A stretch of DNA of 64,000 nt from a virus. The position numbers and the translations under genes are program-made. The first letter of the stretch is position 1, and each line of letters begins with the position of its first letter. Below the pieces are notes generated by a model, which saw only the letters and a list, made by a program, of their open reading frames with translations, made no database searches and was not told the origin of the DNA. The stretch covers positions 1-64,000 of the IMG/VR virus record IMGVR_UViG_3300027365_000011, one strand, 5' to 3'. Shown piece after piece: positions 1-55,014 of the stretch.

Positions 1-600
1 CCCTTCGATTAACCACCTCAGACAAGGTATCTCTCCCCCTTTCCCGCCGCCGCAGACCTGGACGCCTTGGCACTGCCAACAATCCGTCCCTATATAACGC
101 CCACCCGGTGCCTGCCGTCCTCTCGCCGCCGTCAGGGAAACCAACACATATCGGAACCACCTGGGCAACAAGGTATCTCTCCCCCTTTCGGCCCGCCGGG
201 CGGCGAGCACCGGGCAACGGGGAAGCCTTCCACCCATCACCGTCAATCTGTCCCATTTCCCCGGCCACCAGCCCTGCCGAACAGTCAATCTCTCCCCCTT
301 TCGGGCCTCGTCAGGGAAACCAACACATATCGGCCGGGGCCGGACAGCCCGAGTACAAGGTATCTCTCCCCCCCATCGACGCCCTGGAGGCCGCGCCACG
401 GCGCCCCTGGGCAGCCGCGGGGAATCCTTCTCCCGTTGACCTGGCCACCCGGCGGCCGCCAAACGGGGGAGAAATACCTTGCGTGCCGATCGCCACCAAC
501 AATCCGTCCCTTTATCGGAGACGACCCCGGCCACCGGACGCTGCCAGCCCGACCGTCAATCTGTCCCCTTTCGATCATCGGTCATCGCTTATACCGTTAA
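1..600. repeat. Degenerate short-repeat array in non-coding left region
   Basis: No convincing gene is present here. The core CAATCTGTCCCCTTTC and close variants recur near 22, 78, 168, 242, 283, 355, 496 and 554, with an inverted copy at 464-482. One subset reads ACAAGGTATCTCTCCCCC, another AACAATCCGTCCCT. Copies lie roughly 40-110 bp apart with GC-rich DNA between them. The first bases of the window look like the end of another copy, so the array probably continues to the left. It could be an iteron-type origin, a cluster of protein-binding sites or a packaging region; the sequence does not decide. Confidence 0.6.
131..333 (+). repeat. Pair of perfect 24-bp direct repeats
   Basis: Positions 131-154 and 310-333 are identical over 24 bases; both begin GTCAGGGAAACCAACACATA. 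They lie 179 bp apart inside the degenerate array and each is followed by one of its core repeats. The perfect match against a degenerate background suggests a recent duplication or a conserved protein site. Confidence 0.8.
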
Positions 601-3899: not shown

Positions 3900-5215
3900 G
3901 CGGGACCAAGCCCCCTTCCTCGGTCGCCTGGGCCATCGACGCCATTCCCGGGGCATCCGACTTCAAGGGCGTGGAGCGCGCCCTGCTCAGTGTGCTCAAC
4001 GACTGGATGCGCGGCCAGATCAACCGCGCGCTGGATGCCGACACCCTCGAGCGCGACGACTACCGGCGGCTCATCGCCCTGGCCGAGAACAACCCCATGG
4101 CGCAGCACCACCTGACGCTGACCGGGGGCGTCGGCAAGGCCAAGGTGGCGCTGGGCGAGACGCTGCTGAACGAGAGCCATGCCGCCCAGGCGGCCGCCAT
4201 CGACCGGCTGCTGACCGAGCATGTCGGCAACCGCGACGAACAGGACGCCCTGGCCAACCTGGACCCGCGGGAAGCGACCCGCAGCTACGTCCAGGAGAAG
4301 GGCAACGCCACGATCAGTCGGGCGTTCTTCCAGGAGCTGGTCGACACCGGCGAGTATCCCACGCTTACCGCCGCGGCCATGTCCGTGTCGCAGACCCACG
4401 GCGCCAGCCCGGAAACCGCTCGACGCATGAAGCGCCGCTACAACGACTACATCGCCGAGCGCGCCCGGGAGGAAAGCCCCGACCTGCGTGAAGCCGAGGC
4501 CAAGACGCTGGCGCTGGGCCAGGCGATCATCGACCAGGCCAAGGCCAATATCGGCCTGTCGCCCCGCCACGCCGCCCAGGTGATGGGCCGCAGCGTGGTT
4601 TCCGGGCGCGGGGCGCGGGGCATCGCCAGCCGTGCCGGCTGGGCGCCGAAGCAGATGGATCAGGACACCGCCGAGCTGATGCAGCTTGTCGGCAAGGCGC
4701 TGCCCCGCGACGGCAAGGTGGTCATCGGCAGCAAGAAGGACATCGAGGATCAGTTGCAGGTGCGCCTGCCCCACCCCAAGGGCCGCTCGTTTCAGGTGGC
4801 CAAGCCGTCGTCGCGGGCCGATCGCTCCGAGACGGCCGCCGTCTGCCTGTCGGGCAACATCTCCAAGCGCGTGCTGTTCCACGAGGTCGGTCACGCCCTG
4901 GAGACCCTGAATCCGGCGGCGAACGCCGTGGCCTACGCTTGGCTCAAGCGGCGCACCCAGGGCTACCAGGAGCAGTCCCTGCGCGAGCTGACCGGCATCC
5001 GCTACGACCGCAGCGAACGGGCGATCCGTGACGAGTTCGTGGACGCCTATGTGGGCAAGACCTACCGCCCCTATGGCGGCGTGCAGCTCAACGAAGCGCT
5101 GGCGATGGGCCTCGAGCGCCTGTCCGACCCGCGCGCGGCCGGCGAGCTGGCGCTGCGCGACCCCGACCACCTGGCCATGGTGCTGACCGCACTGCAACAG
5201 GAGCCGATGGCATGA
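3896..5215 (+). CDS. HEVGH metallopeptidase-domain protein of the virion operon
   Basis: The product is 439 aa from a GTG overlapping the previous stop (GTGA). The much longer upstream extension of this frame is a shadow of the two preceding genes. Residues 329-333 are HEVGH within RVLFHEVGHALE, the zinc-binding HExxH of metallopeptidases. The N-terminal half is helical and resembles internal or minor head proteins. Such domains recur in large phage virion proteins, but whether this one cuts capsid proteins, host proteins or nothing is unknown. The third zinc ligand is not obvious; E/D residues around DEFVDAYVGK are candidates. Confidence 0.6.
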   Translation: MSGTKPPSSVAWAIDAIPGASDFKGVERALLSVLNDWMRGQINRALDADTLERDDYRRLIALAENNPMAQHHLTLTGGVGKAKVALGETLLNESHAAQAAAIDRLLTEHVGNRDEQDALANLDPREATRSYVQEKGNATISRAFFQELVDTGEYPTLTAAAMSVSQTHGASPETARRMKRRYNDYIAERAREESPDLREAEAKTLALGQAIIDQAKANIGLSPRHAAQVMGRSVVSGRGARGIASRAGWAPKQMDQDTAELMQLVGKALPRDGKVVIGSKKDIEDQLQVRLPHPKGRSFQVAKPSSRADRSETAAVCLSGNISKRVLFHEVGHALETLNPAANAVAYAWLKRRTQGYQEQSLRELTGIRYDRSERAIRDEFVDAYVGKTYRPYGGVQLNEALAMGLERLSDPRAAGELALRDPDHLAMVLTALQQEPMA

Positions 5216-5541
5216 ACCTGACCCTGGAAGCCCGCCTGGGCGGCGACACTGTGACGATCGACCTCGAGGCCGCCGACGCCGAGAGCCGCGAAGTCGGCTT
5301 CGACAGCGACGACCCCGGCGCCTACGCCCACGTCACCGCCGCCATGCACTACCTGTCCGGACTGGACGGCAAGACCGTGACGCCCGAGACCGCCACCCTG
5401 CCCGACTGGGCCATCATCATCGGCAAGCTGGCCGAGGGCGACATGCGCGTGACCGCGGGCCGGCTCCCCAAGGCCCTGCTGGGCGACCCCATGGGCGAGG
5501 CCAACACCCCGGATGACGAAGCGGGAGGCGACGACACATGA
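5212..5541 (+). CDS. Hypothetical acidic protein
   Basis: The product is 109 aa and unrecognised. It is strongly acidic, with an Asp/Glu-rich C-terminus (DDEAGGDDT). The ATG overlaps the upstream stop as ATGA and the next gene starts before this one ends, so it is translationally coupled within the 1470-6137 virion operon. Confidence 0.6.
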   Translation: MNLTLEARLGGDTVTIDLEAADAESREVGFDSDDPGAYAHVTAAMHYLSGLDGKTVTPETATLPDWAIIIGKLAEGDMRVTAGRLPKALLGDPMGEANTPDDEAGGDDT

Positions 5542-6137
5542 GCCTCCGCCCCGTCAATCAGCACCGCCCGGTCACGGACCAGCTCCGGCAGGATCTCGCC
5601 GCGACGATCGCCGGGCACCCCATGAGCTTCGACGTGGTGGTGTTTCCCGCCGCCAACCAGCGCCAGGAGGACGTGACCGCCCCCGCGCTGGGCGGCGACG
5701 TGGTGGGCACCCTGGAGGCCAGCGAGCGCGACCTGGAGTACGGCGAGCCGTTCGTGAGCGCGGCCCTGGAGCCGAACAACGCCCTCGAGCACTACCCCAT
5801 GCTGGATGCCGGCAGCGGCTACGGGCTGGAAAGCGACGACAGCGAGCCCTACCGGCTGCTGCTCAAGGAGGGGCCGGTGCCCAAGCGCAGCGTGGTGGCC
5901 TTCGTGGTCGATACCGGCAACGGGCTGGCGATGCGAGCCATGTACGTGCTCAAGGGCGACACCATCGGCAGCAAGGCGCCCGCCGGCACGGTCTACAGCC
6001 TGATTCCCTACCTGGGCGGCATGGACTCCCTGGACGGGCTGACGCTGCCGGACAGCGACCCGAGCGCCGACACCCTGATCGAGCGACTGGATGACCTGCT
6101 GGCATCGGTTTCGCTGGCGGGGACCACGCCGCCCTGA
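5538..6137 (+). CDS. Hypothetical virion-operon protein
   Basis: The product is 199 aa and unrecognised. It is predicted to be largely beta-stranded with an acidic middle. It is the last gene of the overlapping run that begins at 1470, and the next promoter lies directly downstream. A structural role is inferred from position only. Confidence 0.6.
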   Translation: MSLRPVNQHRPVTDQLRQDLAATIAGHPMSFDVVVFPAANQRQEDVTAPALGGDVVGTLEASERDLEYGEPFVSAALEPNNALEHYPMLDAGSGYGLESDDSEPYRLLLKEGPVPKRSVVAFVVDTGNGLAMRAMYVLKGDTIGSKAPAGTVYSLIPYLGGMDSLDGLTLPDSDPSADTLIERLDDLLASVSLAGTTPP

Positions 6138-6184
6138 TTACCTATCAGGCAATCTGTACCGTGCAGGCAACGGAGTGTTACAAT
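6138..6184 (+). promoter_or_regulatory. Promoter with two tandem operators (O2, O3)
   Basis: TTACCTATCAGGCAA (6138-6152) and GTACCGTGCAGGCAA (6156-6170) are two diverged copies of the dispersed operator. GTACCG (6156-6161) is placed as a -35, 17 bp from the -10 TACAAT (6179-6184), the same geometry as at 1411-1439. The promoter would drive the tail-fibre genes from 6218. Two weaker sites may bind cooperatively. Confidence 0.65.
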
Positions 6185-6217
6185 AATCGCGTGATTCGTT
6201 GCCTACGGTGAGCAGCC

Positions 6218-6787
6218 ATGTCGTCCCGCGATGGGTCCATTGACCGTCTGCTGGAAGCCCTGAACCGAACCCCGGTAACGGCGGTGGTCCGGCACACGAT
6301 CGATACCCTGACCGGGACTGACACGGTGCCCATCGGCGACCTGGCCCCGGCGGGGAGTCGGGAGCTGGCCATCGTGCAGGCAGCCACCGGGCGGCATGAC
6401 GTGACCCTGGACTGTTCGCTGGCGCCCGACCACCTGGCGCTGGCGCTGTACAGCCGCGGGATTCACTTCACCCCGCAGCCCTGGGATGCGCTGGCTGATC
6501 CGGTCGAGACGACCATCACGGTCTCCTACCTGCGACCGGCGCTATCGACGGACGCAAGCGCGGACCTGCGCCATTACAGCGTCACGCTGCCCGCGGGCCT
6601 GGAGCATGTCGTGGTACACGGCATGGGCTCCGAGAAGTTCGTGGAGCGCGTGACCTCACTGGCCGGCGATCCGCAGTTCGCGGCCGTCGAGGCCATGGAT
6701 GCCGACCGGCTGCGCGTCACGCTGACCGAGGCAATCCCGGTACGCCTGGATGCCGTTTTTCTCCCCGACCTGGAAGGTGACGCATGA
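6218..6787 (+). CDS. Hypothetical protein at the head of the tail-fibre operon
   Basis: The product is 189 aa and unrecognised. Its composition suggests alternating beta strands without membrane segments. It is the first gene after the tandem-operator promoter and overlaps the next gene by four bases. A tail or baseplate role is inferred from its neighbours. Confidence 0.6.
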   Translation: MSSRDGSIDRLLEALNRTPVTAVVRHTIDTLTGTDTVPIGDLAPAGSRELAIVQAATGRHDVTLDCSLAPDHLALALYSRGIHFTPQPWDALADPVETTITVSYLRPALSTDASADLRHYSVTLPAGLEHVVVHGMGSEKFVERVTSLAGDPQFAAVEAMDADRLRVTLTEAIPVRLDAVFLPDLEGDA

Positions 6788-7060: not shown

Positions 7061-8320
7061 ATGGCCTTTCCTAAGTTTCATGGCATCAATCTGGCCGCCA
7101 ACGGTTTCATCGAAAACCTGCGCGTCGAACGCCTGGCCGCCGACCCCTCGCCGGTCAGCGCCGGCCGCGTCTGGTACAACACCACCGAAAAGGCGCTCAA
7201 GTATTCGTCCCTGGACGACACGGGCGCCGTGGTGGTGCAGGCCTTCGGCAACGTCACCTACATCGACAGCCAGGTTTCCAGCGAAGCCCAGGCCCGCAGC
7301 GACGCCGACGATGCACTCGATGCCCGCCTGACCACGGTTGAAACCGACTACGCGCAGACCAGCTACGTCGATCAGAAGATCGCCTCGCTGGGCAATGCGT
7401 TCGAGTATGTCGGCACCATCGACGGTGGCGTCGACGCGGCTTCCGCCCTCGACCTGTCCACCCTGAGCCAGACCGCCGCCGGTGACTACTACAAGGTCAC
7501 GACCGCCGGTTACTTCAAGGCGACTTCCGGCGATACCGCGTTCTACCTGAACGCCAATGACGGCGTTCTGTTCAACTCGGCCGGTGGCGTCGATACCGTC
7601 GACAACACCAACGCCCAAGTACAGGGCACCACGGATTTCGTCACCGTCACCGGATCGGCCGATACCGGCTTCACCGTCGACGTGGCCCAGGCGTTCAAGG
7701 ATCGCGTTTCCACCCTGGAAACCGAAGCTGGCGACCTGACCACTCTGACCACCGATGCCAAGGGCGACCTGGTATCCGCGCTCAACGAAGTCGACGCCAA
7801 CGCCGATGCGGTCCAGGGCGAACTGGACACCACGCAGACCGGTGCCGGCCTGGGCACTGACGGCACCTACGCCGCCAATGCCGGTGCCAACTACATCGCT
7901 TCCGCGACCAGCCTCAAGGATGCCGACGACAAGCTCGACGCCGCCCTCAAGTCCGAGGCCAACCGCGCCAAGGCGGCCGAAGGCGACCTGTCGACCCTGA
8001 GCACGACTGCCAAGGCGTCGCTGGTGGCCGCGATCAACGAGGTCGACGCCGCTGCCGGCGAGGGTGCCGCCCAGCTCAAGACCGACATCAACAACCAGCG
8101 CGCGACCTTCCAGTCCGGCGCGGCGGCGCTGAACCACAGCGTTGCCCACGGCCTGAACAGCGCGTTCGTGTCGGTACAGGTGTGGGTCGAAGGTAGCGAT
8201 GGCATCTATCGCAACGACATCGTGGCTGTCGAGGAAACTGACAACAACACCGTCAGCATTTCCCTGACCGAAGCCGCCAACGTGAAAGTGGCCGTCCAGT
8301 CGCTGACTGACCTGGCCTGA
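7061..8320 (+). CDS. Tail-fibre-like protein
   Basis: The product is 419 aa. The N-terminus (residues 1-70) has the phage attachment layout NGFIENLRVE...RVWYNTTEKALKY. The middle is a long alanine- and aspartate-rich, coiled-coil-prone shaft with repeats such as VSALNEVDANA and VAAINEVDAAA. The C-terminal 60 residues (HSVAHGLNSAFVSVQVWV onward) form a beta module that reappears in the protein at 8795-9310. GGAGAA precedes the ATG. The layout is that of a trimeric fibre with a proximal anchor and a distal beta domain. Confidence 0.7.
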   Translation: MAFPKFHGINLAANGFIENLRVERLAADPSPVSAGRVWYNTTEKALKYSSLDDTGAVVVQAFGNVTYIDSQVSSEAQARSDADDALDARLTTVETDYAQTSYVDQKIASLGNAFEYVGTIDGGVDAASALDLSTLSQTAAGDYYKVTTAGYFKATSGDTAFYLNANDGVLFNSAGGVDTVDNTNAQVQGTTDFVTVTGSADTGFTVDVAQAFKDRVSTLETEAGDLTTLTTDAKGDLVSALNEVDANADAVQGELDTTQTGAGLGTDGTYAANAGANYIASATSLKDADDKLDAALKSEANRAKAAEGDLSTLSTTAKASLVAAINEVDAAAGEGAAQLKTDINNQRATFQSGAAALNHSVAHGLNSAFVSVQVWVEGSDGIYRNDIVAVEETDNNTVSISLTEAANVKVAVQSLTDLA

Positions 8321-8794: not shown

Positions 8795-9310
8795 ATGGCC
8801 AACGTATCCGTTCGCACCAACCTGGATTTGCGCGGCCACCTGCAGTTTCAGCAGGTCGCCGACTTTCCCGCCAGCCCGAAGCCGGGCCAGACCTGTTTCA
8901 AGGGCGGCATCCTGTTCATTTTCGCCACCATTGGCGGGATTGAAACGTGGTATCCGACCAACCGCCCCCAGTCGAGCTATGTGCATAGCCAGGGGCTGGA
9001 AAGCCTGACGTGGACGCTGCGCCACAACCTGGGCACCACTGACGTGATCGTGGCGGTCTATGACACCGCCGGGCAGATCGTCAACGCCAGCATCACCATC
9101 ACCGATGCCAACACCGTCGTCGTGGAACTGACCGAGGCGATTGCCGGGCATGCCGTGGTGTTCGGCCATGAGCAGATTTCCGCACCCGTCGTGACCGCCC
9201 AGAAGATCAATGCCGACGAAATCACCGTCCAGAACCAGCCGGTGGCGGTCGAGGACGACGTGGCGACGGCCTTCGATGGCATGGCGACCGAATTTGAACA
9301 GTCTGCGTAA
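8795..9310 (+). CDS. Tail-associated protein sharing a beta module with the upstream fibre
   Basis: The product is 171 aa. Residues about 65-120 (LTWTLRHNLGTTDVIVAVYD, then NTVVVELTEAIAG) match the C-terminal module of the 7061-8320 protein (HGLN...VSVQVWVEGSDG, then NTVSISLTEAANV). This is the fold often found at tips or joints of phage fibres. The N-terminus (NLDLRGHLQFQQVADFPASP) resembles a virion-attachment segment. It is probably a short fibre or connector made by duplication of the distal domain. Confidence 0.6.
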   Translation: MANVSVRTNLDLRGHLQFQQVADFPASPKPGQTCFKGGILFIFATIGGIETWYPTNRPQSSYVHSQGLESLTWTLRHNLGTTDVIVAVYDTAGQIVNASITITDANTVVVELTEAIAGHAVVFGHEQISAPVVTAQKINADEITVQNQPVAVEDDVATAFDGMATEFEQSA

Positions 9311-9321
9311 GGAATCCGATC

Positions 9322-10896
9322 ATGGCTGACATCAATACCAGTTTGACCAACCTGCGCGCCAAGATCAGTGCCGCGCTCCAGAAGCACCGTGACGGCATCG
9401 CCCAGAACGCCGGCGACATCAGCGACCTGCAGACCGCGCTGGGCACCAAGCTCGACGCCAGCGGTTTTACCGCCGCCGACATTCTGGCCAAGTTGCTGAC
9501 CGTCGATGGCGCGGCATCCGGCCTGGACGCCGACACCCTGGATGGCAAACAACTGGCCACACTTGAATCCGAGCGTGACAGCGCGATTGCCGCTGCCGTG
9601 TCCGCGTTGGTGGACACCTCGCCGGAAACCCTGGACACCCTGAGCGAACTGGCCGCCGCGCTGGGCAATGACCCGGATTTCGCCACTACCATCGCCAACC
9701 AGATCGGCCAGAAGCTCGACAGCGCCAGCTACACGGCTGCTGACGTGCTCGCCAAGTTGCTGACAGTGGATGGGGCCGGCACCGGACTCGACGCTGACAA
9801 GCTCGACGGCAAGCAACTGGCGACCATTGAGAGCGAGTACCAGGCCGCCGCCAGCGCTGCCGAGGGTGCCGCCAAAACCCATGCCGACAATGTCGTCGCG
9901 CCCAAGCTTGACGCCAGCGCCTATACCGCCAGCGACGTGCTGACCAAGGTCAAGACCGTGGACGGCGCCGGGTCAGGGCTCGATGCCGACCTGCTGGACG
10001 GCAAGCAGGCTGCCGACTTCGCCACGTCTGCCCAGGGCGGCAAGGCGGATAGCGCGGTCCAGCCGGCTGACCTGGCGAGTGTCGCCACGTCCGGCGAGTA
10101 CAGCGACCTGGCGGGCCGTCCCGGTAACGCTACCACCACCACCGGCGGGCTCATGGCGTCCGGTGACAAGGCCAAGCTCGATGGTATCGAAGACGGCGCC
10201 CAGGCCAACGTGGGTGATGAGTTCAGCGTCAGCGGCGACTATGCGGGCCTGCGCGCGCGGGCAACCACGCAAGCCGACGTGGGCCTGGATAGCGTCGACA
10301 ACACCAGCGATGCCGACAAGCCGGTTTCCTCCGCGCAGCAGGCCGCGCTGGACCTGAAGGTCGACATCGACAGCGTGGTCGATGGCTTGGCCAGCCTGTC
10401 CGCCGCGTCGCCGCTAAGCGCCAATCAGGGACGGGTACTCAAGGGGCTGATCGACAACATCAACACCCTGCTGGCCAGCGATGACACCACCCTGGATGAA
10501 CTGCAGGAAGTGGTCACCTACATCAAGGCCAACCGCCAGACCCTGGATGCACTGGGGATCAGCAACATCGCCGGGCTGAGCGATGCACTGGCCGGTAAGG
10601 TCGACGTGGTAGCTGGAAAAGGCCTGTCGAGCGAGGACTACACCGGCACCGAAAAGACCAAGTTGGCCGGTATCGAGGCAGGCGCCACCGGCGACCAGAC
10701 CAAGGCCGACATCGACGCGCTGGGCATCAATGCCGACACGGTAGACGGCAAGCATGCCGCCGACTTCGCCGATGCCGCGCACACCCACGATTACCTGCCG
10801 ACCACCGGCACGGCGACGGATTCCAGCAAATTGGGCGGCATTGCTGCCGACCAGTACCTCACTGTGAACGACGCGATTGACCTGGGAGAGTTGTGA
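9322..10896 (+). CDS. Repeat-containing tail fibre
   Basis: The product is 524 aa. A unit of the type LLTVDGAGTGLDADKLDGKQ occurs at least three times in the first 235 residues and a shorter copy (NADTVDGKHAADFA) near residue 475. This is a classic trimeric fibre-shaft repeat. Segments such as KAKLDGIEDGAQANV and KTKLAGIEAGATGDQ form a second repeat type. The C-terminus ends ...YLTVNDAIDLGEL, a motif shared with the next protein. AAGGAA precedes the ATG and the stop overlaps the next start. It is probably the long fibre that carries or adjoins the diversified protein. Confidence 0.75.
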   Translation: MADINTSLTNLRAKISAALQKHRDGIAQNAGDISDLQTALGTKLDASGFTAADILAKLLTVDGAASGLDADTLDGKQLATLESERDSAIAAAVSALVDTSPETLDTLSELAAALGNDPDFATTIANQIGQKLDSASYTAADVLAKLLTVDGAGTGLDADKLDGKQLATIESEYQAAASAAEGAAKTHADNVVAPKLDASAYTASDVLTKVKTVDGAGSGLDADLLDGKQAADFATSAQGGKADSAVQPADLASVATSGEYSDLAGRPGNATTTTGGLMASGDKAKLDGIEDGAQANVGDEFSVSGDYAGLRARATTQADVGLDSVDNTSDADKPVSSAQQAALDLKVDIDSVVDGLASLSAASPLSANQGRVLKGLIDNINTLLASDDTTLDELQEVVTYIKANRQTLDALGISNIAGLSDALAGKVDVVAGKGLSSEDYTGTEKTKLAGIEAGATGDQTKADIDALGINADTVDGKHAADFADAAHTHDYLPTTGTATDSSKLGGIAADQYLTVNDAIDLGEL

Positions 10897-11393
10897 TGAG
10901 TACAGAAATTGAAATCGGAAATCTGGTAGCGACCGCGAGGTCGCTCACCACTCGCGCGCAAGCAATCATCGACCTGGGTGCGTCGCCCGACGCTATGGCG
11001 GTGATTTTCGAGGAGGTTCTGAAAACCGGCGATGCTGCTGTGGATGCAGTAATTGCCAGCGCGGTGAATACAGCGATTGCCAGCCATGGCGACGTAGCCG
11101 CTGCCGTAGAGGGTGCCATCCAGGCCGGCATTGATGCCGGGCAGATCACCGGCGTATCCCAGACGGAACTGGATACGGCGATTGCCGGTGCCGTTTCGGC
11201 GGGCAACGTAGCGACTCCATCCACTGTCGACGACAAGCTGCAGGCAGCCATTGACGGCGGCAGCGTGGAAACCCCGGCGGGCGCAGCTTCGCGCGCTCGC
11301 CAGGAAATCAAAAACACCACGACCATTGGGGGCATCCCGCTCTCCAACATCCTGACCATTGACGACCGTATTGACCTGGGAGTGATTAACTAA
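10896..11393 (+). CDS. Fibre-associated protein, C-terminal motif shared with upstream fibre
   Basis: The product is 165 aa from the ATG at 10896; an in-frame GTG at 10893 is also possible. It is alanine-rich and helical, ending ...ILTIDDRIDLGVIN, closely matching the end of the 9322-10896 protein. A shared ending on two adjacent proteins suggests a common docking site, for example for the DGR target encoded next, whose ATG overlaps this gene's stop. No catalytic motif is seen. Confidence 0.6.
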   Translation: MSTEIEIGNLVATARSLTTRAQAIIDLGASPDAMAVIFEEVLKTGDAAVDAVIASAVNTAIASHGDVAAAVEGAIQAGIDAGQITGVSQTELDTAIAGAVSAGNVATPSTVDDKLQAAIDGGSVETPAGAASRARQEIKNTTTIGGIPLSNILTIDDRIDLGVIN

Positions 11394-12391
11394 TGGCCAC
11401 TAAAGTCATGACGCAGCCGCTGACATGGAAGCGGTTTACCAGTAACGCGATTGACACTTATGTGGGTGAGCCCGGCGAGCCGATTATTGATTTTCGGGGC
11501 AGTAAGCCGGAATTGCGCATCTGCGATGGCGTGACTGAAGGTGGGCATTTCGTCGGTGGCGGTGAGGCCCTGTCCGGCGTGGCGATCCCCCAGATCATTT
11601 CACCGCTGGATGGCGCCAGCAACGTAGCTCAGTCGCCGATCATTACCGCCAGTCAATTCAACGGTATCAAGGCGGACGGCACCGCCGACACCCATGCGGC
11701 GTCCATCTTCGAGTTTGCCAGTGATGCCGGCTTCACCAACATCATCCACACCAGTGGGCGCGATACCGTCAACCTGACCAGCTACGACCTGGCAGAAGCG
11801 GGCGTGACGTTCGAGGGTGGATCGACCGTCTACGCGCGGCTGACCTACGAAGGCGAAAGCACCAACGCCGCCACAAGCTCGGTCGTGTCGTTCAGCATCA
11901 TCGCAATTTCCGAAGGCGCGGTTATCGACGGCGACATCGTGGTCGGTCAGATCAACGGCTACTGGCTGCTGGCAGCCCCGGCGAGCAAGCGGGCGCAGAA
12001 GGAGTGGGGCAGCTACGGCACGGATACCAGCCTGCCGAATATTGGAAGTTCCGGCACACCCGACCCAAACAGTGGCGAATACAACACCGACGTTCTCGTG
12101 GCTCGTGGCTCAGGCCAGCATCCAGCCGCCGAGTATTGCCGATCCATGGGGTACGACCTTCCGAACAAGGAAGAGCTCGACTTCATGTTCGATAACCACG
12201 ACATGATCGACTCGGTTGACCCATCCGGCGGCAGCAATACGTTTACCTCCTTCGGCTCCAGCTACATCTGGTCCTCCACTGAGTACTCCAGCGGCAACGC
12301 CTGGATTCAGAGTTTCAGTGACGGCAACCAGTACGGCAACGGCAAGGGCAGCAGCAACTGGGTGGCGCCCGTGCGGAGGGTTTCTGTTTAA
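11393..12391 (+). CDS. DGR target: tail tip/receptor-binding protein with C-type-lectin-like domain
   Basis: The product is 332 aa. Residues 1-55 (GEPIIDFRGSKPELRICDG) resemble the Mtd N-terminal domain. Residues about 60-185 look like an Ig/FnIII-type beta domain (IISPLDGASNVAQSP). The last 140 residues form a DUF1566/Lcl-type lectin fold with AAEYCRSMGYDLPNKEEL, IWSSTEY and WVAPVRRV. The variable repeat encodes the final part of this domain, exactly where DGR targets vary. By analogy with Mtd it should sit at the fibre tip and bind the receptor. It overlaps the previous gene and precedes Avd, the template repeat and the reverse transcriptase. Confidence 0.9.
   Translation: MATKVMTQPLTWKRFTSNAIDTYVGEPGEPIIDFRGSKPELRICDGVTEGGHFVGGGEALSGVAIPQIISPLDGASNVAQSPIITASQFNGIKADGTADTHAASIFEFASDAGFTNIIHTSGRDTVNLTSYDLAEAGVTFEGGSTVYARLTYEGESTNAATSSVVSFSIIAISEGAVIDGDIVVGQINGYWLLAAPASKRAQKEWGSYGTDTSLPNIGSSGTPDPNSGEYNTDVLVARGSGQHPAAEYCRSMGYDLPNKEELDFMFDNHDMIDSVDPSGGSNTFTSFGSSYIWSSTEYSSGNAWIQSFSDGNQYGNGKGSSNWVAPVRRVSV
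12272..12379 (+). repeat. DGR variable repeat (VR)
   Basis: These 108 bases align without gaps to the template at 13001-13108. There are 12 mismatches and every one is at an adenine of the template. They change eight codons of the target gene: five AAC codons and one AGA among them become TAC, GGC, AGC or AGT. Identity resumes at the GC-rich end GGTGGCGCCCGTGCGGAGG, the expected initiation-of-mutagenic-homing segment. It then breaks at 12380-12382, where VR and TR differ at a non-A base, consistent with IMH versus IMH*. Confidence 0.95.
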
Positions 12392-12407
12392 CCTTTTGTT
12401 TTTAAAG

Positions 12408-12431
12408 GGGTCGGGCGTTCAAGCCCGGCCC
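12408..12431 (+). promoter_or_regulatory. Hairpin/cruciform downstream of VR
   Basis: A 9-bp stem (GGGTCGGGC paired with GCCCGGCCC, one G-T pair) with a 6-base loop lies 28 bp past the VR. DGR targets are known to need a GC-rich inverted repeat just downstream of VR for efficient homing. No U-run follows on either strand, so a terminator role is less likely. Confidence 0.65.
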
Positions 12432-12435
12432 AACC

Positions 12436-12849
12436 ATGAATTTAGCGCAGCAAGAGATTGTGATGGAAAAGCTACAGGCTTACGAGAAAACACCGATTTA
12501 CAGAAAGGCCAGATATTTGCTGCGTGACGCGCATGTCATCACCGCCAGAATGAGCAAGTCGTACAAGTACACGCTTGGCCGGAAGATTCTCGACGCCGCT
12601 CAGGAAATGGCGGAGGCGGTGTTTTTGGCCTACGAGGAACGCGACAATCTTTCCGTGAAGCTGCGCTTTATCGAAGACATCAAGCGCAGCACACAGACGA
12701 TGCTGATCAACTACCGCATCGCCAGCGAGTTGCAGCAGGTGCCGCACAAGCGCTATGGCGAACAGGTGTCCATCGTCGTCAATATCATCAAACAGTGCCG
12801 AGGCTGGGAGCAGTCCACGCGCGATCAGATCATGAGCAAGGCGCTCTAA
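12436..12849 (+). CDS. avd: Avd-type DGR accessory protein (four-helix bundle)
   Basis: The product is 137 aa from ATG 12436; ATG 12463 would give 128 aa and is an alternative. The pattern MSKSYKYTLGRKILDAAQEM, followed by helical segments to the end, is that of bAvd-like four-helix-bundle proteins, which form basic pentamers and bind the reverse transcriptase and template RNA. It sits between the target gene and the template repeat, as in Bordetella phage BPP-1. Net charge is positive, as expected. Its codon use is less GC-biased than the structural genes, shared with the RT gene, suggesting the cassette moved as a unit. Confidence 0.9.
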   Translation: MNLAQQEIVMEKLQAYEKTPIYRKARYLLRDAHVITARMSKSYKYTLGRKILDAAQEMAEAVFLAYEERDNLSVKLRFIEDIKRSTQTMLINYRIASELQQVPHKRYGEQVSIVVNIIKQCRGWEQSTRDQIMSKAL

Positions 12850-13000
12850 CGTGTTAAGCATGCGTCACCCAGCCAGAGTGTGCTTAGGCCAAGGCCGGCA
12901 CAGTGAGCTTATTACCTCGGGTTGCAGCGCCCATGTGGCAAAAAGCGAAAGCATTCTTTCGGGCGCGGTGACGTGCCCGGCGGATTTGAGACTGCATCCT
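12850..13000 (+). ncRNA. Leader between Avd and template repeat (part of the DGR RNA)
   Basis: No credible gene lies here. The stretch separates the avd stop from the template repeat and would be transcribed as part of the avd-TR-rt RNA. In characterised DGRs, sequence flanking TR, including the 3' end of avd and the spacer after TR, is needed for cDNA priming. The RNA ends are not defined. Confidence 0.5.
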
Positions 13001-13108
13001 TCCTCCACTGAGAACTCCAGCAACAACGCCTGGATTCAGAGATTCAGTGACGGCAACCAGAACAACAACAACAAGAACAACAGCAACTGGGTGGCGCCCG
13101 TGCGGAGG
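13001..13108 (+). repeat. DGR template repeat (TR)
   Basis: The 108-bp invariant template contains 36 adenines, concentrated in AAC codons around 13021-13088, with runs such as AACAACAACAACAAGAACAA. AAC is the codon whose A-mutagenesis reaches the widest amino-acid range without making stops. It lies 151 bp after avd and 16 bp before the RT start codon. An open frame running through it is not a gene; it mirrors the target's C-terminus. Confidence 0.95.
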
Positions 13109-13124
13109 TTATCTGGGGTGGCGC

Positions 13125-14240
13125 ATGCTTAAACTACACCATCGCTATACCTATCAGGATATATTTCAGGCGTACATCGACTGTCGGCGTGCCAAGCGCA
13201 ACAAAAACAGCACGATTGCCTTTGAGACTCGCTTCGAGAAGAACCTGGATCGCCTGCTGGATGATGTCAATTCCGGCGAATATCAGATAGGCCGGTCGGA
13301 AGTGTTTGTTGTCGAGCGCCCCAAGGCCAGAGAGATATGGGCGGCCAAGTTCCGTGATCGAATCGTTCACCACCTTGTTTACAACGACATCGGCGAGCAT
13401 TTCGAGGAGCGGTTTATCGAGGACACGTTCAGCTGCATCAAGGGGCGCGGCACACTGACGGCTTCTAACCGATTGTCTACTTTTCATCGGAGAATCACGA
13501 ACAACTATGCAGATGACTGCTGGTTTCTACAGTTCGACATCAAGAATTTCTTTGTTTCCATCAACAAAGACATTCTGTGGAAGGCCCTGGAACCAAAAAT
13601 AGGCGATGAGCTAGGCGACCACACGCTTACGACACGGTTGGTCAAGCAGATCATTGAAAATGATCCTACGGTAAGCCCCATCATCAAGCCGAACAGCCGG
13701 TTCGAGCTTGTGCCCAAGCACAAGTCACTATGGCATTGCCCGAAGCACAAAGGTCTGCCCATCGGGAACCTGACCAGTCAGTTTTTCAGCAATGTCTACA
13801 TGGACGCGATGGACAAATTCATCAAGCATGTGCTGAAAGCAAAGTATTACGTTCGCTATGTGGACGATGCCGTGATCCTGTCGAAAGACAGGGCGTATCT
13901 TGAGTGGTGCCTTGATGAAATAGATCGCTTTATTCGCGAGCGACTCGACTTGGTGCTTCATCCCGACAAGTGCATGATAAAGAAGGCATCGCAAGGGATA
14001 AATTTTGTCGGTTACATCGTCAAGCCGTACCGGAGATACACGCGGAGAATGACGGTAGAATCGGCAAAGGTGCTGGCAGGAAGCCAGCCTACAGAGGCCA
14101 ATATATCGTCGATCAACAGCTATCTTGGTATCATGAAGCACTCGGATAGCTACAACTTGAGAAAGGCGATTTGCGTTGCCGTTGCTGTACCCACCCTGGT
14201 CGGACACGACTCAGGCTTCAACAAGCTAGTCTTACTATAG
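13125..14240 (+). CDS. DGR reverse transcriptase
   Basis: The product is 371 aa from ATG 13125. RT motifs are in order: FDIKNFF (137-143), GLPIGNLTSQ (210-219, the DGR-specific IGxxxSQ form of motif 4) and the catalytic YVDD (245-248). NFVGYIVKPY follows, the thumb-proximal motif of DGR and group II-like RTs. No maturase or endonuclease domain is present. The enzyme copies the template RNA with errors at adenines and the cDNA replaces the VR of the target gene. The GGAGG at the end of TR is 16 bases upstream; GGGGTGG is a closer possible ribosome site. GC is clearly lower than in the neighbouring virion genes. Confidence 0.95.
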   Translation: MLKLHHRYTYQDIFQAYIDCRRAKRNKNSTIAFETRFEKNLDRLLDDVNSGEYQIGRSEVFVVERPKAREIWAAKFRDRIVHHLVYNDIGEHFEERFIEDTFSCIKGRGTLTASNRLSTFHRRITNNYADDCWFLQFDIKNFFVSINKDILWKALEPKIGDELGDHTLTTRLVKQIIENDPTVSPIIKPNSRFELVPKHKSLWHCPKHKGLPIGNLTSQFFSNVYMDAMDKFIKHVLKAKYYVRYVDDAVILSKDRAYLEWCLDEIDRFIRERLDLVLHPDKCMIKKASQGINFVGYIVKPYRRYTRRMTVESAKVLAGSQPTEANISSINSYLGIMKHSDSYNLRKAICVAVAVPTLVGHDSGFNKLVLL

Positions 14241-15004: not shown

Positions 15005-15166
15005 ATGCAGCAATTTGAGAGCATTCAGCTCAAGCGTGGCGACGAAAGCAAGGCGGATGCCTACACCGGGCCTGCCGGTGAAATCGTGGTAGACACCACC
15101 AACTGGACGCTGCGCCTGCAGGATGGCCAGACCAGCGGCGGCACCCAGGCGGGCACGCCTCAATAG
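15005..15166 (+). CDS. Stand-alone Mtd-N-like attachment domain, 53 aa
   Basis: ATG 15005 follows GAGAGGTG and the frame runs to TAG at 15164-15166. The protein has QLKRGDESKADAYTGPAGEI, then TLRLQDGQTSGG. This is the hallmark of the major-tropism-determinant N-terminal domain found at the base of phage receptor-binding proteins. Here nothing follows it. A related segment starts the DGR target at 11393. It could be a capping or docking subunit, or the remnant of a second target protein that lost its lectin domain. Confidence 0.65.
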   Translation: MQQFESIQLKRGDESKADAYTGPAGEIVVDTTNWTLRLQDGQTSGGTQAGTPQ

Positions 15167-54165: not shown

Positions 54166-55014
54166 TCAGGCGTCCGCCTTGGCCTTCCCCTTCCCTTGGG
54201 CGCTATCGGCGTCCTTGCCACCCTTGGCGGCCTGTGTGATGGCACGCAGATCGAGAATCTTGTCCAGGTTCTCGAATTGGGTGCTCAGGTAGTCGCGCAT
54301 CTTGAGCGAATCGGACACCACGCTGTTGAGCATGGCCATTTCCTCCCGGCGGCCGGCATCGCCGCGGGTCTTCTTCATCGCCTCGCGAAGCTGGCCCTTC
54401 AAGTCCTCGCCCTGCTGGGCAATCTCCCACACGCTCATTTTCAGCGTGCGCGACAGCGGGAAGGCGTTGTCGGTGGGCAGGATGATCGGGCCGTCCAGCT
54501 TCTCGCGATCGAGCAGCGCGAAGGCGTCGGGCATCCGGCGGCGCACGGTGCGAACGTCGGTGCTGGTGGTGCGGGTCATGACCATCAGGATCTTGCCGGC
54601 GTAGTCCGGCATCAGCTCGCGCACATGGTCGAGCGTCTTCTTGGCGTTGAGCACGTCCTGACCGGGGCCGCTGACCGGGACGACGATCATGTCGATGAAG
54701 GCATCATAGCCGCGGGCGCCGATGTGCTGCAGGGCCATGGCGCTGGTGCGGTTGCCGCCGATGTCGGCGACGACATAGGCATCGTCCGTCCGGGCCATCA
54801 GCTCATCGATGGCGAACTCGGCATCCACTTCCTGACCGACCCGAACGCGCTCGGAATGGATGGCGCTATCGGTGAAATCGGCGCTATCGTGATTCTCGTC
54901 ATCCAGCTCGACCACCGCCGCCTTGCCGGTGCGCTCCAGCACCCAGGGCGCCAGCAGTTGCATGGACGTGGTGGACTTGCCGCTGCCGCCTTTCGTGTTG
55001 ATAACCAGGATCAT
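54166..55014 (-). CDS. parA: ParA-type partition ATPase
   Basis: The product is 282 aa. The deviant Walker A KGGSGKST (residues 8-15) is diagnostic of ParA/MinD ATPases. VVELDDENHDSADF resembles the switch region and YVVADIGGNRTS the Walker B area, where the usual D..P is altered. It lacks the N-terminal helix-turn-helix of long ParA proteins, so it is a small type Ib-like ParA. It starts 3 bases after a small upstream gene, the likely centromere-binding protein, with an iteron array beyond. Together they form a plasmid-type partition locus. Confidence 0.8.
   Translation of the reverse strand: MILVINTKGGSGKSTTSMQLLAPWVLERTGKAAVVELDDENHDSADFTDSAIHSERVRVGQEVDAEFAIDELMARTDDAYVVADIGGNRTSAMALQHIGARGYDAFIDMIVVPVSGPGQDVLNAKKTLDHVRELMPDYAGKILMVMTRTTSTDVRTVRRRMPDAFALLDREKLDGPIILPTDNAFPLSRTLKMSVWEIAQQGEDLKGQLREAMKKTRGDAGRREEMAMLNSVVSDSLKMRDYLSTQFENLDKILDLRAITQAAKGGKDADSAQGKGKAKADA

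What the first reader, a model, noticed from the sequence alone, without database searches (positions are those of the whole stretch)
11393..14240. Complete phage diversity-generating retroelement driving a lectin-tipped tail protein
Target gene with a DUF1566/C-type-lectin end, VR, hairpin, Avd, TR and a DGR-type RT (IGNLTSQ, YVDD) occur in one 2.8-kb block, in the same order as in Bordetella phage BPP-1. It lies among tail-fibre genes, so it very probably diversifies host-receptor binding. All required parts are present and intact.
Basis: partly seen in the sequence, partly recalled or inferred. Interest (0 to 1): 0.93.

Follow-up and report, generated by a model that had tools for sequence, protein, structure and literature searches.

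The report
Tail-tip mutating retroelement in P1-like phage
A phage related to coliphage P1 carries a complete diversity-generating retroelement, a known kind of genetic cassette that rewrites one short stretch of a tail-tip gene and so probably lets the phage try new host receptors; the cassette is ordinary in kind, but where it sits and how its RNA is laid out are instructive.

Summary
Window 11393-14240 holds a target gene, VR (12272-12386), Avd, TR (13001-13115) and a DGR-type reverse transcriptase (13125-14240). TR and VR differ at 14 of 115 positions, 13 at template adenines (P = 8e-7). The RT falls inside the DGR clade (99/99 against group II and RT-Cas1). All eight nearest characterised relatives scanned, and the BPP-1 control, carry adenine-specific TR/VR pairs.

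New context: the 83-kb virus record is a P1-like myophage, nearest to an 86-kb Vreelandella alkaliphila contig (capsid 74% identical) that lacks a DGR. Vibrio plasmid p0908 and Alteromonas pAMBAS45 carry a different, non-orthologous DGR in the same tail-fibre slot (AU test p = 1.4e-4). Between those two, TR is identical while VR differs at 20 of 110 positions, 18 at adenines. So this slot gained DGRs at least twice.

Two details depart from BPP-1. The downstream hairpin has a 6-nt loop (GTTCAA) rather than GRNA. The non-coding spacer lies before TR (151 nt), not after it (9 nt).

Verdict: new member of a known kind. Activity and receptor binding in this phage are inferred, not shown.

The parts
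11393..12391 (+). DGR target gene, 332 aa: N-terminal attachment part, Ig-like middle (about residues 65-178), Lcl_C/CLec-type C-terminal domain ending in VR
   Evidence: C-terminal 159 aa 51% identical to the VR-bearing tail fibre tip of IMG/VR contig L023
12272..12386 (+). variable repeat (VR), last 38 codons of the target
   Evidence: 88% identical to TR; 13 of 14 mismatches at TR adenines
12352..12379 (+). GC-rich 3' part of VR identical to TR, candidate IMH (initiation of mutagenic homing) region
   Evidence: 28-nt exact identity followed by the first non-A mismatch (12380); role inferred from BPP-1
12408..12431 (+). inverted repeat, 9-bp GC-rich stem with 6-nt loop GTTCAA, about 22 nt after VR; candidate hairpin/cruciform
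   Evidence: loop does not fit GRNA (PMC3240598)
12436..12849 (+). Avd (accessory variability determinant), 137 aa
   Evidence: 60% identical to the Avd of L023 over 114 aa
12850..13000 (+). 151-nt spacer between avd and TR, candidate structured 5' domain of the DGR RNA
   Evidence: sub-threshold Rfam RT-7 match at 12872-12917, E 0.003; Rfam RT-15 lies at the same place in six relatives; own fold z -0.81 only
13001..13115 (+). template repeat (TR), non-coding, 37 A of 115, 11 AAC codons in register with VR
13125..14240 (+). DGR reverse transcriptase, 371 aa
14241..14954 (+). ORF after RT, weak DUF4376 match, possible tail-fibre assembly chaperone
   Evidence: E 0.001, below gathering score
7061..11393 (+). 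tail-fibre-type genes upstream of the target (7061-8320, 8795-9310, 9322-10896, 10893-11393)
   Evidence: 9322: phrog tail fiber 2e-35; 7061 and 8795 have homologues at the same place in Vreelandella contig L044
15233..19652 (+). P1 gp24, gp6, gp5 and gp23 (major capsid) homologues that bound the slot on the right

Best explanation
This is a bona fide diversity-generating retroelement in the receptor-binding (tail-fibre) slot of a P1-like myophage, probably a phage-plasmid of a Halomonadaceae host. An RNA spanning the avd-TR spacer and TR is bound by the RT and Avd. The RT copies TR into cDNA and misincorporates opposite adenines. The cDNA replaces VR at the 3' end of the target gene, so up to 37 template adenines, mostly in AAC codons of the surface-loop part of a C-type-lectin-like tip, are randomised while the rest of the protein is kept. 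The new tips alter receptor binding and hence which cells can be infected. The cassette belongs to an RT lineage shared with a P2-like phage contig and with temperate Pseudomonas, Burkholderia and Shewanella phages, and was exchanged into this slot. Shown here: the parts, adenine-specific divergence of TR and VR, DGR-clade RT, P1-like context, absence from the nearest relative, and an unrelated and evidently active DGR in the same slot of p0908-type phage-plasmids. Inferred: that this copy is active now, that the target is a tail tip, that it binds a receptor, and that the element lives as a plasmid.
For: A-specific TR/VR divergence, P 8e-7. RT: best PDB match is the RT entry 8ub7 (E 1e-30, next group II 3e-9), phrog_1423 1e-94, DGR clade 99/99 and sister to L023 100/100. 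TR/VR pairs with essentially only adenine mismatches in Haboob, SC_8, LPPA56, QDWS, Cruim01, phPA-G, Magia, Bacteroides F2, BPP-1 and IMG/VR contigs. Haboob and phPA-G share an identical TR but have different VRs. P1 gene order gp26-gp25-[slot]-gp24-gp6-gp5-gp23-gp22 and on to darA/darB/portal, collinear with p0908. Nearest relative L044 (Vreelandella alkaliphila, MCP 74%) has other fibre genes in the slot and no match to the RT anywhere in its genome. p0908 against pAMBAS45: TR 0 of 110 differences, VR 20 of 110 with 18 at adenines, rest of target 19 of 1104 with 17 at third codon positions. ParA-like ATPase at 54166-55014.
Against: No population data and no near-identical relative of this phage, so present activity is untested. 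The hairpin loop (6 nt, GTTCAA) departs from GRNA; in BPP-1 a loop enlarged by 2 nt fell to near background (PMC3240598), though a later study finds the stem-loop helpful but not strictly required (PMC12875486). Other members of this RT group also lack GRNA loops. Avd and Lcl_C matches are below curated cut-offs. CLec fold not confirmed. Placement at the virion tip is by gene neighbourhood only.
Confidence: 0.9

Rival explanations
1. The DGR is a recently inactivated or rarely active relic: the VR was last rewritten some time ago and the element is now carried passively.
For: Non-canonical hairpin loop; only 13 of 37 template adenines differ; no VR variants of this phage could be observed.
Against: RT, Avd and target ORFs are open and RT motifs intact; all non-A positions of VR and TR are identical over the first 108 nt, which drift would erode; relatives show similar numbers of substituted adenines (7-19) and also lack GRNA loops.
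Confidence: 0.12
2. The target is not a receptor-binding tail tip but a lysogenic-conversion or secreted lectin, as may be the case for the nearest RT relatives, whose targets sit in the early region of temperate phages rather than in the tail module.
For: The closest annotated relatives (Haboob, Cruim01, Magia, QDWS) have their DGR beside methyltransferase, recombination and integrase genes with small stand-alone CLec targets.
Against: Here the target lies in the tail-fibre slot directly between fibre genes and P1 gp24/6/5 homologues; the 61%-identical RT of L023 serves a 697-aa tail fibre with a weak Phage_tail_fib N-terminus and the same tip.
Confidence: 0.07
3. The similar repeats are an ordinary gene-conversion duplicate and the RT is a defence-type (DRT/retron) or group II RT standing nearby by chance.
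For: PADLOC DRT and NCBIfam group II models match weakly.
Against: The NCBIfam matches fall far below cut-offs (for example TIGR04416 93 bits against 300); SQ motif and tree place the RT with DGRs; adenine bias P 8e-7; Avd present.
Confidence: 0.01

Closest known systems
IMG/VR contig 3300017916_000224 (L023), P2-like phage DGR
   Same: RT 61-63% and Avd 60% identical, target tip 51% identical, same order fibre-VR-avd-TR-RT, avd-TR spacer 135 nt and TR-RT gap 3 nt
   Different: Carried at the end of a long P2-type fibre (697 aa) in a phage stretch with no structural genes shared with the window
RT-15-type DGRs of Pseudomonas phages Haboob, SC_8, LPPA56, Cruim01, phPA-G, Burkholderia phage Magia, Shewanella phage QDWS
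   Same: RT 41-45% identical, Avd, adenine-specific VRs, small lectin-like targets, spacer 5' of TR
   Different: Two or three targets, located in the early/lysogeny region, not in the tail module
Bordetella phage BPP-1 DGR (mtd-avd-TR-brt)
   Same: Gene order, Avd, A-specific mutagenesis, C-terminal VR in a tail protein
   Different: RT on a separate branch; TR follows avd directly with a 144-nt spacer before brt, the reverse of the window; GAAA hairpin loop; target of another family
P1-like phage-plasmids p0908 (Vibrio sp. 0908) and pAMBAS45 (Alteromonas macleodii)
   Same: DGR in the same slot between gp25-side genes and gp24/6/5/23; collinear structural genes, MCP 47%
   Different: RT only 29% identical and not sister (AU p 1.4e-4), SUMF1-type target, TR close after avd with a GATA hairpin loop
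Vibrio cholerae HE-09 kappa-like prophage (DiGReF paper, PMC3521204)
   Same: Precedent for a DGR-plus-target block replacing the tail-protein block of a phage
   Different: BPP-1-type RT and Mtd target; kappa phage, not P1-like

Membership tests
Diversity-generating retroelement (DGR) | Reverse transcriptase of the DGR clade with the SQ-type motif | tested here: met
   IGNLTSQ, YVDD; ML tree, DGRs against group II and RT-Cas1 99/99; only three outgroup RTs, no retrons in the tree
Diversity-generating retroelement (DGR) | TR/VR pair with mismatches at template adenines | tested here: met
   13 of 14 at A, P 8e-7; above the 75% criterion of PMC8144416
Diversity-generating retroelement (DGR) | VR at the 3' end of a protein-coding target, TR non-coding near RT | tested here: met
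   VR covers codons 294-331 of 332; TR intergenic, 9 nt before the RT start
Diversity-generating retroelement (DGR) | Accessory protein Avd (common, not universal) | tested here: met
   PHROG 6e-10; NCBIfam/Pfam matches below cut-off; alignment
Diversity-generating retroelement (DGR) | C-type lectin fold of the variable domain | tested here: inconclusive
   Lcl_C E 9e-7, below gathering; AlphaFold2 pLDDT about 43, no fold search worth running
Diversity-generating retroelement (DGR) | GC-rich hairpin with GRNA tetraloop 4-34 bp after VR (phage DGRs) | tested here: not met
   9-bp stem at the expected distance but 6-nt loop GTTCAA. This is a frequent, not a defining, feature: related DGRs lack it too
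Diversity-generating retroelement (DGR) | Mutagenic retrohoming in living cells | not testable with these tools
   Only indirect: VR differences with constant TR in relatives
BPP-1 subtype | Non-coding spacer between TR and RT that recruits RT-Avd and primes cDNA | tested here: not met
   TR-RT gap 9 nt against 144 nt in BPP-1
P1-like phage (Punavirus relatives) | P1 structural genes in P1 order | tested here: met
   gp26, 25, 24, 6, 5, 23, 22, 21, pmgG, bplB, pmgC, pmgB, pmgA, bplA, 16, hdf, darA, ddrB, darB, portal, pro
Phage-plasmid | Plasmid replication and partition genes | tested here: inconclusive
   ParA-like ATPase 54166-55014, repeats at 22-572; P1 repA, repL, parA, parB not matched

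The most novel reading that the evidence does not exclude
The window, L023 and the RT-15 group form a DGR subtype whose structured RNA domain lies 5' of TR instead of 3': avd-TR gaps of 135-173 nt and, in most members, RT genes that begin within about 15 nt of TR's end, with Rfam family RT-15 covering exactly the 5' spacer. If so, RT recruitment and cDNA priming, which in BPP-1 depend on the 3' spacer, must be done here by a 5' domain or by RNA inside the RT gene.
Probability: 0.35. Interest if true: 0.65.

Novelty: new member of a known kind. Interest (0 to 1): 0.42.

Why it matters
DGRs are the best-known natural system for targeted hypermutation, and tail fibres are their classical phage target. 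What this case adds: (1) P1-like phages, whose type member P1 switches fibres by Cin inversion, have acquired DGRs at least twice in one receptor slot, which suggests that the slot, not the cassette lineage, is under selection for variability; (2) p0908 and pAMBAS45 give a clean natural sign of DGR activity in that slot; (3) the reversed spacer layout makes the question of how DGR RTs are recruited and primed outside BPP-1 directly testable with small, sequenced phages.

Tried and rejected
Single-protein scans of IMG/VR with the RT and the capsid protein found nothing; small alignments worked better. GTDB scan with the RT: none. tblastn of the target in phages: none. AlphaFold2 of the target and of its C-terminal domain: low confidence, so no fold search was run and the lectin fold rests on Lcl_C only. 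A second VR elsewhere in the 83-kb record: none. A P1-type invertible fibre system: a Cin-like serine recombinase exists (78343-78963) but no strong inverted repeats flank the fibre genes and it lies about 64 kb away; rejected as fibre switch. RNA fold z-scores of 5' and 3' spacers are mixed and do not decide between them. The MAFFT alignment of the 5' spacers did not align the hairpin well, so no covariance model was built.
Full report
Observation. The target ORF runs 11393-12391 (332 aa). A 115-nt direct repeat lies at 12272-12386 (VR) and 13001-13115 (TR), 88% identical. The 14 mismatches are 13 A-to-other changes relative to TR and one T-to-G at the extreme 3' side; with 37 adenines in 115 the chance of 13 or more of 14 falling on A is 8e-7. 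The two repeats are in register: 11 AAC codons of TR lie in frame with the target, and only two TR codons (AGA, AAG) can yield a stop by adenine changes. Avd is at 12436-12849 and the RT at 13125-14240. TR has no other partner in the 83,477-base record.

RT identity. The RT matches phrog_1423 at 1e-94 and, among solved structures, the entries 8ub7-8ube (named 'Reverse transcriptase'; from my own knowledge these are the BPP-1 DGR complex) at 1e-30, against 3e-9 for the best group II RT. In a maximum-likelihood tree of 24 RTs the DGR RTs separate from group II and RT-Cas1 with 99/99 support, and the window RT is sister to that of IMG/VR contig L023 with 100/100. pXMO116, an unclassified plasmid RT, falls among the DGRs and was not counted. 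Retron RTs were not included. Nearest phage relatives are at 43-45% in Pseudomonas, Burkholderia and Shewanella phages. A scan that tolerates changes only at adenines found TR/VR pairs in each of them, and in BPP-1 as a control: 7-19 adenine changes and, with one exception of two, no other change. Further IMG/VR relatives behave alike.

What the element is. The major capsid protein is a P1 gp23 homologue. P1 proteins match the record in P1-like order from gp26 and gp25 through gp24, gp6, gp5, gp23, gp22, gp21, pmgG, bplB, pmgC, pmgB, pmgA, bplA and gp16 to hdf, darA, ddrB, darB, portal and pro. In plasmids, capsid proteins of 47-49% identity occur in P1-like elements of Vibrio, Photobacterium, Alteromonas and Spartinivicinus; one of this group, pVv01, is a proven inducible P1-like plasmid prophage with a contractile tail (PMC4132613). 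The closest relative found is an 86-kb contig of Vreelandella alkaliphila (L044; capsid 74%, gp24 66%, gp6 61%), which suggests a Halomonadaceae host; G+C is 65.8% in the record and 54% in L044. A ParA-like ATPase is present, P1 repA, repL, parA and parB are not matched, so a plasmid lifestyle is likely but not shown.

The slot. In this P1-like group the fibre genes sit between the gp25-side genes and gp24. In L044 that slot holds other fibre genes and no DGR, and its genome has no match to the RT. In p0908 and pAMBAS45 the slot holds a DGR with a SUMF1-type target, Avd and RT; a third copy is in a Kiloniella MAG contig, L046. Their RT is 29% identical to the window's; a tree with window, p0908 and pAMBAS45 RTs held together is rejected (AU p 1.4e-4), and the targets are of different families. 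V. campbellii, V. vulnificus p48/10, V. owensii and L048 keep the first 42-45 residues of the p0908 target but lack a DGR. So the slot has taken up DGRs at least twice and swaps tips behind a retained attachment part. The published V. cholerae HE-09 case, a DGR block replacing a tail block in a kappa phage, is a precedent (PMC3521204).

Activity. For the window's own DGR no sibling was found. Two indirect tests were possible. Haboob and phPA-G share an identical TR while their VRs differ. p0908 and pAMBAS45, nearly identical otherwise, differ at 20 of 110 VR positions, 18 of them TR adenines, with no difference in TR, two in 1144 nt of RT, and 19 in 1104 nt of the rest of the target, 17 at third codon positions. 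That is the signature of an active DGR in the homologous slot, though of another DGR lineage.

Departures from BPP-1. (a) Hairpin: 12408-12431 has a 9-bp stem with loop GTTCAA. Phage DGRs were described with 7-10 bp stems and GRNA tetraloops, and enlarging the BPP-1 loop by 2 nt nearly abolished homing (PMC3240598). The p0908 type (GATA), VP58.5 (GGTA), Bacteroides F2 and BPP-1 (GAAA) fit; the window's RT group does not (loops read by eye from the printed downstream sequences). A recent reconstitution found the stem-loop important but not strictly required (PMC12875486). (b) RNA layout: BPP-1 has avd and TR abutting and 144 nt between TR and brt; that 3' spacer recruits bRT-Avd and supplies the priming adenine (PMC12875486). 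The window has 151 nt before TR and 9 nt after; L023 135 and 3; Haboob 157 and 15; SC_8 8 after; QDWS 163 before but 92 after to its annotated start. Rfam family RT-15 covers exactly the pre-TR spacer in Haboob, SC_8, QDWS, Cruim01, Magia and L026; L023 and the window have sub-threshold RT-15 and RT-7 matches at that place (E 0.0035 and 0.003). Fold z-scores are mixed and do not settle which side is functional. No paper in the held library was found to link RT-15 to DGRs, but that library is partial.

Verdict. A DGR, complete by the usual criteria, in the receptor slot of a P1-like phage. The large survey of PMC8144416 mined genomes and metagenomes for DGRs and found tail proteins to be the main viral targets; whether it contains this very contig could not be checked. 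The kind is known, hence 'new member of a known kind'. The interest lies in repeated acquisition at one P1 slot and in the reversed spacer layout.

Noticed in passing
window 15005-15166: A 53-aa ORF right after the DGR block matches Pfam Mtd_N (major tropism determinant N-terminal domain, E 1e-7, above gathering), perhaps a relic or spare attachment domain of another receptor protein.
   Followed up: partly
record 72074-73249 (L013 8574-9749, minus strand): A fusion of RdgC exonuclease with a FtsK gamma domain (E 2e-24), a homologue of P1 hrdC; an unusual domain pairing.
   Followed up: no
window 22-572: Several dispersed copies of an iteron-like motif (about CAATCTSTCCC) plus a perfect 25-nt repeat at 130 and 309; candidate plasmid origin, partition site or operators.
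   Followed up: no
L041 (V. parahaemolyticus pXMO116-1) 4971-6275: An RT with IGSVTSQ and FIDD, similar to RTs on many Vibrio and Shewanella plasmids, groups with DGR RTs; probably the 'inverted' DGR type described for Shewanella baltica OS155 in PMC3521204.
   Followed up: partly
L002, L003, L005, L006, L008, L026: Rfam family RT-15 lies exactly between avd and TR in all six, so it is most likely the 5' part of the DGR RNA.
   Followed up: partly
record 78343-78963 (L013 14843-15463): Cin/resolvase-type serine recombinase, about 64 kb from the fibre genes and without strong inverted repeats there.
   Followed up: partly
L035, L036, L045, L048: P1-like phage-plasmids without a DGR keep the first 42-45 residues of the p0908 DGR target in their slot gene: modular tip exchange.
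   Followed up: partly
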